Assembly: GCF_009754915.1 (NCBI RefSeq) | Contig: NZ_WPIK01000001.1 | Location: forward strand, 1 to 64,000 | From: Mucilaginibacter arboris | Lineage (GTDB): Bacteria; Bacteroidota; Bacteroidia; Sphingobacteriales; Sphingobacteriaceae | Length of the DNA stretch: 64,000 nucleotides | Direction: 5' to 3' | Shown: in pieces, positions 24,686-27,646 of the stretch | Position numbering within the stretch: the stretch's first letter is position 1 | Layout of the letters: each line of letters opens with the position of its first letter | The notes under the pieces: generated by a model | Told to the model about the DNA's origin: nothing | What the model saw: the letters and a program-made list of their open reading frames with translations, nothing else | The model's database searches: none | Translations under genes and position numbers: made by a program

Positions 24686-25633
24686 TTAAATTTTAAATTC
24701 CAAATTTTTCAGTTTTTCGGCCAATACTTCGCTTATTTTCCTGTAAGAATCAAAAGTCCAACCAGCAACATGCGGTGTAAGCAACACGCGGCCGCTATTT
24801 TTCAGTTCATTAAACCAGCTTTGTTCTGCTAATGCCGGAAACTTTTCTGTTTCCAGCACATCTAAACCTGCGCCTAAAATTTTGCCGCTTTTTAGTCCGT
24901 TTAAAATAGCTTGTACTTTTGCAATTTCTCCGCGGGCCGTATTCAGCAGAAATATCGGTTTGCGGAAATGGAACAAATATTCATCGTCCACCATTCCTTT
25001 GGTTTCGGCTGTTAACGGAATATGAAAGCTCAGCACATCACTTAGTTTTACAATTTCTTCCATGCTTACTTCGCGTGCAAAACGATCAGAAAAACCAGTT
25101 TTATATTTATCATAAGCAATTACTTCTACCCCAAAACCGCTAAGTTTCTGGGCGAAACTTTGTCCCATGTGCCCATAACCGATAATACCAACCGTTTTGC
25201 CTTTTAATTCGTAGCCGCGGTTACCTTCGCGGTCCCATTTGCCATTGCGGATTTCCATGTCTGCTCTCCTGAAATTATTCATCAGCGAAAGCAGCAAACC
25301 AATTGCATGTTCGCCAACGGCATCGCTGTTTCCTTCTGGCGCATTAATGCAGATGATGCTTCTTTTATCGGCATATTCTTCGTCAATATTGTCCATTCCG
25401 GCTCCGGCGCGGGCAATAAAACGCAGTTTTGGTGCAGCATCGATAATTTCTTTGTCAACCTGAAATTTGGTTCTGATGGCCAAACCTTCGTAATCTGTAA
25501 TGATGCTTAACGTTTTTTCCCTGGTAAAAGAAGCATCGATGGTGCAGGTATAACCTAATTTTTCTGCAGCTTGGGCAAAAGCTGGGTGGAGATCATCAAC
25601 GATTAGGATTTTTTTTTGAATTAGATTGGACAC
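24686..25633 (-). CDS. serA: D-3-phosphoglycerate dehydrogenase-like 2-hydroxyacid dehydrogenase
   Basis: 315 residues from the GTG at 25633. An earlier TTG at 25654 lies inside the apparent -7 promoter box TATCTTTG (25652-25659), so it cannot be translated from that promoter. The fold is the short SerA type without an ACT domain. The Rossmann motif is VGIIGYGHMGQSFA near 145, with LNTARGEIAK, the Arg in ARAGAGMDNID, and a C-terminal LTPHVAGWTFDS holding the catalytic His. It would oxidise 3-phosphoglycerate for serine synthesis, though related 2-hydroxyacid substrates are possible. Its first about 40 codons and promoter are duplicated 720 bp upstream around a TA pair. Two motif copies (25356, 25523) lie inside. 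Confidence 0.88.
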   Translation of the reverse strand: MSNLIQKKILIVDDLHPAFAQAAEKLGYTCTIDASFTREKTLSIITDYEGLAIRTKFQVDKEIIDAAPKLRFIARAGAGMDNIDEEYADKRSIICINAPEGNSDAVGEHAIGLLLSLMNNFRRADMEIRNGKWDREGNRGYELKGKTVGIIGYGHMGQSFAQKLSGFGVEVIAYDKYKTGFSDRFAREVSMEEIVKLSDVLSFHIPLTAETKGMVDDEYLFHFRKPIFLLNTARGEIAKVQAILNGLKSGKILGAGLDVLETEKFPALAEQSWFNELKNSGRVLLTPHVAGWTFDSYRKISEVLAEKLKNLEFKI

Positions 25634-25677
25634 AGTATTTTGATTTTGGAACAAAGATACTGGATAATTTAAAATGG
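25506..25677 (-). repeat. Direct repeat copy 1: serA 5' end and promoter
   Basis: About 172 bp, nearly identical (roughly 95% by eye) to 26226-26397, exactly 720 bp away. This copy contains the functional serA start region and promoter. Its outer end also supplies the last two codons and stop of the ParE/RelE-type toxin, so the toxin gene is fused into the repeat. Confidence 0.92.
25652..25659 (-). promoter_or_regulatory. serA promoter -7 box
   Basis: TATCTTTG on the minus strand matches the Bacteroidota -7 consensus TAnnTTTG. No clear -33 TTG is seen at the usual distance. Placement fixes the serA start downstream at GTG 25633. Confidence 0.6.
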
Positions 25678-25962
25678 GTTTTGCTCAGGATTCTGCCTGT
25701 TGTCCCAAAAAGTAATCAAATATATTTCCTTGTTACGCATTAAGTAAAAAACAGAAGTTTGTTTTGTAATAACTGCTTTTCTAATTTGGTTATGATTAGA
25801 AGCCGGATAAAGATAGGGCTGATTAAGAATTACGTTTATAACAGCTTCAGTTTTTAAAATGAAGTCCTTTGCTTCTTTTTCTGTCCAACGATAATATAAA
25901 AAATCAATAATTAGCTCAAATTGAACTCTTGCTTCTTCAGACCAGTTAACTATTAAAGCCAT
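25669..25962 (-). CDS. ParE/RelE-type toxin
   Basis: 97-residue toxin of the RelE/ParE superfamily: IVNWSEEARVQFELIIDFLYY (family helix pair, here split), TEAVINVILNQPYLYPAS, and a C-terminal VFYLMRNKEIYLITFWDNRQNP with the typical Y-x-I and W-D-x-R-x-P pattern. RelE members cut ribosome-bound mRNA and ParE members poison gyrase; the pattern is closer to the ParE-like group but not decisive. It overlaps its antitoxin by 17 nt. The last codons (Pro-Phe-stop) fall in the serA repeat, so its C-terminus was formed by the junction. Confidence 0.85.
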   Translation of the reverse strand: MALIVNWSEEARVQFELIIDFLYYRWTEKEAKDFILKTEAVINVILNQPYLYPASNHNQIRKAVITKQTSVFYLMRNKEIYLITFWDNRQNPEQNPF

Positions 25963-26185
25963 AGCGATCTTTCAATTCCTGCATTACCTGATCATGTTTT
26001 TGCGTCCGACCTGCTTCAACATCTTCTATGCCTCGGTTAATGCTTACTTTCACTGAATCAGGAAGCTGGTTCCAAAAATCAAGTTCTTGTTTTTTGAAAA
26101 CGCTTTTGATTTCCTGAATTACAGCCTCATCTTCTGTTTCCAGAATTAATTTAAGCAATTCGATTTTTTCGGCTTCAATATTCAT
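25946..26185 (-). CDS. Antitoxin partner of the ParE/RelE-type toxin
   Basis: 79 residues from the ATG at 26185. A start six codons earlier (26203) is rejected because it overlaps the candidate -7 box TACATTTG (26201-26208). The protein is helical and acidic-basic, with EDEAVIQEIKSVF, FWNQLPDSVKVSINRGIEDVEAGRTQKHDQVM near the end, a pattern shared by small Bacteroidota antitoxins next to RelE/ParE toxins. It overlaps the toxin start, typical of a TA operon. Confidence 0.78.
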   Translation of the reverse strand: MNIEAEKIELLKLILETEDEAVIQEIKSVFKKQELDFWNQLPDSVKVSINRGIEDVEAGRTQKHDQVMQELKDRYGFNS

Positions 26186-26200
26186 TTTAAAACATTTAAC

Positions 26201-26208
26201 CAAATGTA
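26201..26208 (-). promoter_or_regulatory. Candidate TA operon promoter -7 box
   Basis: TACATTTG on the minus strand fits TAnnTTTG and lies about 16 nt before the antitoxin ATG, suggesting the TA pair brought its own promoter. Confidence 0.5.
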
Positions 26209-26225
26209 CGGAATGTTCGTTAACT

Positions 26226-26397
26226 CTTTAACGTTTTTTCCCGGTAAAAGAAGCACCGATGGTGCAGGTATAACCTAATTTTTTGGCAGCTTGAGCAAAA
26301 GCTGGGTGGAGATCATCAACGATTAGGATTTTTTTTTGAATTAGATTGGACACAGTATTTTGATTTTGAAGCAAAGATACTGGATAATTTAAAATGG
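26226..26397 (-). repeat. Direct repeat copy 2: truncated serA 5' end with promoter
   Basis: Second copy of the serA 5' region. It keeps a -7 box TATCTTTG equivalent at 26372-26379 and an open frame of 41 codons (GTG 26353 to TAA 26228) starting MSNLIQKKILIVDDLHPAF and ending TIGASFTGKKR. A few mismatches and two compensating one-base indels separate it from copy 1, so the duplication is not brand new. Sequence to the right of it (from 26398) is probably the original serA upstream DNA. Confidence 0.9.
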
Positions 26398-26459
26398 TTT
26401 TAAGTTTGGATTTATGATGAGATAATTGGATAGTGTATCTTTAACTCAAATTCCAAAAA

Positions 26460-26828
26460 ATGAATATTAATCTTTTGAATAAATATGATATTAAATTCAT
26501 CAATACAATTTTCTTAAATGAAAATGTAAAGCGAATAGATTCTCCAAACAAATATCTAAATCAGTTTATTACAGATAGTCGAACTGTAGAAGAAGCTAAT
26601 GATTTACTTAATGCAATTAACAAAGTTTGTAAAGGTAATACTAAAAAATTAATAGGAATTTCTCTTACATTACTTGCAATAGAAATTACTCAGCATGATG
26701 TTAAGTTATATGATGAACCAGATTTTAATTCGTCTGATGATCCTATTTTCACAATGCCAACAAATGATTTTAAAACTATTGTTGAAGATTGGATTGAGTT
26801 TTTATCATCAACTCCTTTAAGCATATAG
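26460..26828 (+). CDS. Hypothetical protein, AT-rich
   Basis: 122 residues from an ATG with A-rich leader. I do not recognise a family. It is acidic, predicted mostly helical, with no signal peptide or membrane segment; segments include NKYLNQFITDSRTVEEANDLL and FKTIVEDWIEFLSS. Base composition is much more AT-rich than its neighbours and it sits immediately beside the serA duplication/TA insertion, which suggests acquired DNA. Possible roles such as a small immunity-type protein are guesswork. Confidence 0.65.
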   Translation: MNINLLNKYDIKFINTIFLNENVKRIDSPNKYLNQFITDSRTVEEANDLLNAINKVCKGNTKKLIGISLTLLAIEITQHDVKLYDEPDFNSSDDPIFTMPTNDFKTIVEDWIEFLSSTPLSI

Positions 26829-26875: not shown

Positions 26876-27646
26876 CTATTTATTCTCCGCAACCACATTC
26901 GTCAGCCTAACAAAATCCGCAACACTTAGCCTTTCCGCGCGTAAATCCAGCATAGGTTCTTCCGTCATTTTTTCTTTGTTGATGAGTGAAGAAAGCGCAT
27001 TTCGCAAAGTTTTTCGCCGCTGGTTAAATCCCGCTTTTACAACTTGCCAAAACAGTTTTTCATCACAATCCAACTCTTTAATTTCATTTCTGCTGAGCCG
27101 AATAACTGCTGAAAGCACTTTTGGCGGCGGGTTAAAAACGCCTGCTTTTACCGTAAACAGATATTCTACTTTGTAATAAGCCTGCAAAAAAACGCTTACG
27201 ATGCCGTATTCTTTGCTTCCGGGTTTTGCAGCGCAACGCTCGGCAACTTCTTTCTGGAACATGCCAACCACTTCCGGCACTTTATTCCGGTTATCCAGCA
27301 CTTTAAATAAAATCTGCGAGGAAATATTGTACGGAAAATTTCCGATGATCGAAAAAGTACCGGTAAAAACAGCATCAAAATCCATCTCCAGAAAATCTGC
27401 ATTGATCAATTTTTCTCCCAATTGCGGATACTTTTTTTGGAGGAACTGGTATGATTCTTCGTCAATATCTACCAAAAAAACTTCCAGTTCGGGTTTCTGC
27501 AACAAAAAATCGGATAAAATACCCATTCCCGGACCAACTTCCAGCACTTTTCCTTCCGTTTTTAAACTGTTTACAATTTTGGCGGCAATATTTTTATCGG
27601 TTAAAAAATGTTGCCCTAAATATTTTTTGGCTTTTACTAATTGCAT
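26876..27646 (-). CDS. rsmA: 16S rRNA (A1518/A1519) dimethyltransferase
   Basis: 256 residues (KsgA/RsmA). It dimethylates two adenines in the 3' helix of 16S rRNA. KKYLGQHFLTDKNIAAKI is the N-terminal signature, VLEVGPGMGILSDFLL the SAM motif near 36, and NFPYNISSQILF the catalytic motif IV near 100. The C-terminal small domain includes FNQRRKTLRNALSSL. A GT-type motif copy (27362-27375) lies in codons for DAVFTG. Divergent from pdxA. Confidence 0.97.
   Translation of the reverse strand: MQLVKAKKYLGQHFLTDKNIAAKIVNSLKTEGKVLEVGPGMGILSDFLLQKPELEVFLVDIDEESYQFLQKKYPQLGEKLINADFLEMDFDAVFTGTFSIIGNFPYNISSQILFKVLDNRNKVPEVVGMFQKEVAERCAAKPGSKEYGIVSVFLQAYYKVEYLFTVKAGVFNPPPKVLSAVIRLSRNEIKELDCDEKLFWQVVKAGFNQRRKTLRNALSSLINKEKMTEEPMLDLRAERLSVADFVRLTNVVAENK

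What the first reader, a model, noticed from the sequence alone, without database searches (positions are those of the whole stretch)
25506..26397. TA module flanked by a 172-bp duplication of the serA 5' end
The ParE/RelE-type toxin and antitoxin lie exactly between two copies of the serA promoter and first codons (offset 720 bp, about 95% identical). The inner copy keeps serA intact and supplies the toxin's last codons and stop; the outer copy is a truncated serA with its promoter. The module seems to have entered at serA while carrying or creating a replacement 5' end, like elements that restore their target gene, though no integrase is present.
Basis: partly seen in the sequence, partly recalled or inferred. 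Interest (0 to 1): 0.75.

Follow-up and report, generated by a model that had tools for sequence, protein, structure and literature searches.

The report
Stacked toxin-antitoxin alleles at gene ends
A bacterium carries a toxin-antitoxin pair wedged between two copies of the start of a housekeeping gene, and comparison with its relatives suggests that the extra copy is a scar left when two alternative versions of the site were joined end to end, something that recurs with other toxin-antitoxin pairs in the same genome.

Summary
The repeat is real: 25507-25681 and 26228-26401, 95.4% identical over 175 bp, with a ParE-type toxin and its antitoxin exactly between. The same pair sits at the same serA junction without any duplication in sister species G002. 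The copies are far more alike than the species are. The repeat also runs into codons native to the toxin, so the duplication came after the pair was resident. The phenomenon is nevertheless general. A survey of 2.24 Mb of this genome found four more toxin-antitoxin modules between 100-230 bp copies of a gene end (purN, an ispB-like gene, a deacetylase gene, one gene on C34). At ispB, G001 holds module B alone and G002 module A alone, while G000 holds A, gene end, B, gene end, gene. At purN, G001 holds one module and G000 two. Best explanation: alternative alleles of a variable gene-end site were stacked by additive recombination, leaving a truncated gene end as a scar. Addiction, which penalises loss of the resident pair, is inferred as the selective reason. 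Nearest known pattern: 'insertion with long target duplication' of restriction-modification systems. In passing: a genus-specific, uptake-signal-like 12-mer.

The parts
24686..25654 (-). serA (phosphoglycerate dehydrogenase), intact; GTG start at 25633 is likely from comparison with G001
   Evidence: TIGR01327 E=1.3e-74, below that model's full-length cut-off; 2-Hacid_dh/2-Hacid_dh_C
25507..25681 (-). inner copy of the repeat: last toxin codons, promoter-like TAnnTTTG (25652-25659) and first ~50 codons of serA
25669..25962 (-). ParE/RelE-type toxin, 97 aa
   Evidence: no direct Pfam hit to a toxin family; orthologue in G002 hits ParE_toxin PF05016 E=3.9e-4 and relative in G191 E=4.5e-8; 182 of 400 family genomes encode relatives
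25946..26185 (-). antitoxin, 79 aa, overlapping the toxin start; promoter-like TAnnTTTG at 26201-26208
   Evidence: conserved next to the toxin in G001, G002, G173/L104, G182, G191; weak RelB_ParD resemblance E=0.047
26228..26401 (-). outer copy (scar): promoter and 48 codons of serA, frameshifted and decaying; abuts the 5' edge of the antitoxin unit about 45 bp upstream of its ATG
26389..26412 (-). probable toxin-tail remnant NPNLKPF* at the outer edge of the scar, in register with toxin tails of three species
   Evidence: in-register match, shuffle p=0.004
26460..26828 (+). ORF122, small immunity-like orphan gene, low G+C, absent from G001 and G002
26876..27646 (-). rsmA; in many relatives it directly abuts or overlaps serA

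Best explanation
The outer serA fragment is a recombination scar made after the toxin-antitoxin pair was already resident. Two alternative alleles of a variable gene-end site, [antitoxin-toxin | serA] and another of the type [ORF122, toxin-tail remnant | serA], were joined in tandem: one exchange was homologous in a flanking gene, the other an illegitimate join just upstream of the resident antitoxin. The result is allele A, truncated gene end, allele B, intact gene. Shown: the repeat, its lateness, the pair at the unduplicated junction in sisters, and at ispB both single alleles in sisters with the stack here. Inferred: DNA import (for example by natural transformation) as the route, one-sided homologous recombination, and addiction as the reason why the resident pair is added to and not replaced. 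Predicted but not seen: an rsmA-ORF122-serA allele without the pair.
For: (1) Pair at the same toxin-serA junction, no serA duplication, in G002 and G001. (2) Copies 95% identical versus roughly 80-83% between species; both carry private changes. (3) Repeat extends into native toxin codons; toxin-tail-like remnant beside the outer copy. (4) ispB-like locus: G001 = UPF0175 antitoxin + PIN-like toxin next to ispB, one gene end; G002 = DUF433 + DUF5615 next to ispB, one gene end; G000 = DUF433-DUF5615, gene-end copy, UPF0175-toxin, gene end, ispB. (5) purN: by match coordinates G001 = purN + HigBA only; G000 = purN, RelE pair, purN-end copy, HigBA. (6) Deacetylase locus: no pair and one gene end in G002, antitoxin without repeat in G001, pair between repeats in G000. 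(7) G001 itself: rsmA, DUF433-DUF5615, rsmA-end copy, resident ParE pair, serA. (8) M. straminoryzae: a 35-bp serA-start copy flanks a relative pair at the same site.
Against: The predicted allele rsmA-ORF122-serA was not found; only three genomes of the genus are held. An ancestral stack with differential loss, plus gene conversion keeping the copies alike, would look similar. The left edge of the added unit lies about 45-50 bp upstream of the antitoxin start at three sites (serA, L104, C34), more exact than random end joining would predict. In G001 the two rsmA ends group weakly with each other (5 informative sites to 1), which also fits a local duplication. Natural competence and addiction by these pairs are not shown.
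Confidence: 0.58

Rival explanations
1. Insertion with long target duplication: the toxin-antitoxin pair inserted into the 5' part of serA as a discrete unit and duplicated about 175 bp of target, so that serA stayed intact, as proposed for restriction-modification systems.
For: Target-X-target anatomy at serA, purN, ispB, the deacetylase gene, C34 and M. straminoryzae; near-constant left edge of the unit; the precedent is described in PMC3874152.
Against: The pair-serA junction is shared by three species while the duplication is recent and only in G000; at ispB the module B-gene junction is shared with G001, which has no first copy; outer copies often abut another pair or a toxin-tail remnant, not plain host DNA.
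Confidence: 0.2
2. Local tandem duplication of [pair + serA start] followed by deletion of the outer pair down to its last codons, with ORF122 arriving separately.
For: Toxin-tail remnant beside the outer copy at serA and similarly at C34; a RES-toxin 3' remnant beside a duplicated gene at C12:107664-107788.
Against: Cannot explain ispB and purN, where two different modules are separated by the repeat; the toxin tail differs more (6 of 10 variable bases) than the 95% identical repeat; needs two further events at serA.
Confidence: 0.17
3. Assembly artefact joining two strain variants.
For: Draft assembly of 83 contigs; no reads available here.
Against: The outer copy shows pseudogene-type changes at conserved residues and a frameshift; no long shared word at the novel join; similar structures occur at several loci and in other assemblies (G001, M. 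straminoryzae).
Confidence: 0.05

Closest known systems
Insertion with long target duplication of restriction-modification systems (Helicobacter pylori; Nobusato et al. 2000 and Furuta et al. 2010, as cited in PMC3874152 and PMC3031569)
   Same: An addiction-type module between direct copies of about 100 bp of neighbouring sequence, no transposase, neighbouring gene kept intact
   Different: Here the modules are toxin-antitoxin pairs in Bacteroidota; sister species show the single alleles, so stacking of alleles fits better than insertion of the module
Homology-facilitated illegitimate recombination (PMC3240628)
   Same: One homologous and one illegitimate end would give exactly this additive structure
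   Different: Only inferred here; no transformation experiment, and competence of this bacterium is unknown
Type II ParE/RelE toxin-antitoxin modules
   Same: Toxin family, gene order, overlapping genes, own promoter-like box
   Different: Antitoxin not assignable to a named family; activity untested
Elements that restore their target gene on integration (integrase-based islands)
   Same: Target gene remains intact beside a truncated copy
   Different: No integrase, variable repeat lengths (35-224 bp), different genes at each site

Membership tests
Type II toxin-antitoxin (ParE/RelE) | Toxin of ParE/RelE family | tested here: met
   Window toxin itself has no Pfam toxin hit; its orthologue in G002 matches PF05016 (E=3.9e-4, 21.4 bits, just below the 23-bit cut-off) and its relative in G191 passes the cut-off (E=4.5e-8)
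Type II toxin-antitoxin (ParE/RelE) | Small antitoxin gene upstream and overlapping | tested here: met
Type II toxin-antitoxin (ParE/RelE) | Toxicity neutralised by antitoxin | not testable with these tools
   needs expression assays
Insertion with long target duplication | Direct copies of about 100 bp of target flank the module | tested here: met
Insertion with long target duplication | Empty site with a single target copy in relatives | tested here: inconclusive
   Empty site seen at the deacetylase locus in G002; at serA and ispB the sisters hold a module at an unduplicated site
Insertion with long target duplication | Duplication arises together with module insertion | tested here: not met
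   At serA the module junction is older than the duplication, unless gene conversion intervened
Integrase-type genomic island | Integrase gene in the unit | tested here: not met
   The 546-bp interval holds only antitoxin and toxin

The most novel reading that the evidence does not exclude
Toxin-antitoxin addiction turns ordinary allelic replacement at gene-end sites into additive recombination, so that modules pile up in tandem separated by truncated gene ends; the 'long target duplications' described for restriction-modification systems could be the same scars.
Probability: 0.4. Interest if true: 0.75.

Novelty: new variant of a known kind. Interest (0 to 1): 0.6.

Why it matters
How toxin-antitoxin modules without transposases spread and accumulate is an open question. 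These loci give sequence fossils of the step itself, with both parental alleles still present in sister species at one site (ispB). They make a testable claim: loss of a resident module is selected against, so an incoming allele is added and not exchanged. The same logic offers another reading of the long target duplications reported for restriction-modification systems.

Tried and rejected
ORF122 as the mobile unit: some homologues have short direct repeats around them (68 bp in G218, 59 bp in G353) but several lie in immunity-gene clusters with paralogous arrays, and none was seen next to serA. Toxin loci at large: of 30 relatives of this toxin only G000 and M. straminoryzae (L052, same locus as L104) have a flanking copy, so duplication is not a property of this toxin family. 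The first version of that test used unoriented loci and was discarded. The uptake-like motif at the repeat's edge as cause: its density makes one nearby copy unremarkable. Foreign origin of the G001 rsmA end: informative sites do not support it. The RES-Xre case at C12:108044-109837 was set aside as a duplicated unit with paralogous genes. The cited Furuta 2010 paper is not held. No solved-structure relative was found for the toxin by sequence.

Full report
WHAT IS THERE. The repeat lies at 25507-25681 and 26228-26401, 95.4% identical over 175 columns with a single 1-nt gap. On the minus strand the order is rsmA, [ORF122 on the other strand], outer serA start, antitoxin, toxin, inner serA start, serA. 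In the whole 396,822-bp contig it is the only two-copy direct repeat of at least 45 bp and 80% identity with a gap of 200-5000 bp, so it is not background. The toxin has no direct Pfam toxin hit, but its G002 orthologue and a G191 relative match ParE_toxin. The genome (G000, 4.16 Mb, 83 contigs) belongs to a genus of Sphingobacteriaceae for which two sisters are held: G002 (MAG SRR12240180_bin.4, labelled Mucilaginibacter, L092) and G001 (lichen MAG lobaria3, L093).

THE PAIR IS OLDER THAN THE DUPLICATION. In many relatives rsmA directly abuts or overlaps serA (e.g. L138, L146, L160). In G002 the same pair sits between rsmA and serA with no copy of serA. In G001 it sits at the same junction, again with no copy of serA. 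The toxin-serA junction aligns through in all three. More distant relatives of the pair are at the serA start in G182, G191 and M. straminoryzae (G173/L104). The two serA starts of G000 are 95% identical, whereas the same stretch is roughly 80-83% identical between species. Both copies carry private changes, and the outer one shows a frameshift and changes at conserved residues, so the outer copy is a younger, decaying fragment. Toxins at unrelated loci end at about the same length (WDNRQxPxxxxF/Y*), so the toxin's NPF* end is its own, and the repeat therefore reaches into the toxin. Just beyond the outer copy lies AATCCAAACTTAAAACCATTTTAA (NPNLKPF*), in register with toxin tails of all three species (best 10 of the first 15 bases, shuffle p=0.004). 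That is suggestive, not proof.

IT IS NOT ALONE. At the rsmA-serA site, G001 has rsmA, then a DUF433/DUF5615 pair, then a 165-bp 82% copy of the rsmA end, then the resident ParE pair. M. straminoryzae has a 35-bp copy of its serA start before its pair, whose toxin has a stop near codon 7. Counting genomes with a toxin-antitoxin pair at this site, 3 of 6 show a gene-end copy, against 0 of 17 with other DNA in the gap; this is a small sample. A survey of 2.24 Mb of G000 gave 25 repeat pairs with at most three full copies. Many of the others are paralogous genes or internal repeats. Five loci have toxin-antitoxin pairs between gene-end copies: serA; purN (224 bp, 86%; antitoxin + RelE PF06296, with HigBA beyond); an ispB-like gene (202 bp, 90%; UPF0175 + PIN-like toxin, with DUF433/DUF5615 beyond); a deacetylase gene (about 206 bp across the C12/C14 contig ends; ParE + PF09720 antitoxin); and a locus on C34 (107 bp, 82%; ParE). 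Only one of 16 PF05016 toxins in the genome is flanked in this way by a short repeat, so most pairs have no scar.

WHAT MADE IT. The ispB-like locus is the clearest. G001 has UPF0175 + toxin directly against ispB, with one gene end. G002 has DUF433 + DUF5615 directly against ispB, with one gene end. G000 has DUF433 + DUF5615, a copy of the ispB end, UPF0175 + toxin, then intact ispB. Both module-gene junctions of G000 align continuously with those of the sisters. G000 is therefore two single alleles end to end, and the extra gene end is what remained of the first allele. G002 has a further trace, a short gene-end and module-B remnant outside module A, so such events seem to recur. At purN, match coordinates say that G001 has purN + HigBA with one gene end while G000 has a RelE pair, a purN-end copy, and HigBA (the loci could not be cut out). 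At the deacetylase gene G002 has one gene end and no pair. The serA structure fits the same scheme: allele B (pair + serA) is seen in G002; allele A (ORF122 + toxin tail + serA) is predicted and not seen.

HOW IT MAY WORK. One homologous exchange and one illegitimate join, known as homology-facilitated illegitimate recombination (PMC3240628), would give an added allele and a truncated gene end. Because loss of a resident toxin-antitoxin pair is expected to harm the cell, recombinants that keep it would survive; that is inference from how such pairs work, not shown here. The repeats can also recombine with each other and delete the inner pair, restoring a single-allele state.

COMPARISON. The anatomy is that of 'insertion with long target duplication', described for restriction-modification systems (PMC3874152, PMC3031569). 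The defining claim there, duplication at the moment of insertion, is not met at serA. I found no paper in the held library on this pattern for toxin-antitoxin pairs, which is weak evidence of novelty.

LIMITS. Three genomes of the genus, one per species; no reads; about half of the genome surveyed; enrichment for toxin-antitoxin content not calibrated against a full census of such pairs; gene conversion between the copies not excluded.

Noticed in passing
window 25523-25537, 26243-26257 and 30 other places; whole contig C1: TAAAAGAAGCA is the most over-represented 11-mer (207 in 397 kb; the 12-mer TAAAAGAAGCAT 78/90 in the two orientations), 44% inside long ORFs, with an A/T tract 7-12 bases upstream and inverted pairs, resembling the anatomy of Haemophilus uptake signal sequences. 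Same density in G001 and G002, about 2 copies in 0.68 Mb of other Sphingobacteriaceae. No uptake sequence in Bacteroidota was found in the held papers.
   Followed up: partly
L074:4024-4527 (G218) and L090:3950-5790 (G353): ORF122-like immunity genes between short direct repeats (68 bp, copy of a methylmalonyl-CoA epimerase-like gene end, and 59 bp).
   Followed up: partly
C12:107000-110000 of G000 (L197): RES-Xre-like toxin-antitoxin pair between two paralogous 145-aa genes with 88% identical starts; a RES-toxin 3' remnant lies beside the outer one.
   Followed up: partly
C12:311235-314758 of G000 (L207): Two further gene-end repeats (105 and 192 bp) around a reductase-like and a redoxin-like gene, with a broken ParE toxin (312849-313040) abutting one of them.
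   Followed up: no
L104:3705-3995 (M. straminoryzae): The toxin at serA has a stop near codon 7 while the antitoxin is intact; decayed remnants of the pair lie at the same site in L128, L133 and L136.
   Followed up: partly
C12:109833-110139 and C56:151523-151600 of G000: Dispersed repeat families with dozens of copies in G000 and G002, MITE-like.
   Followed up: no
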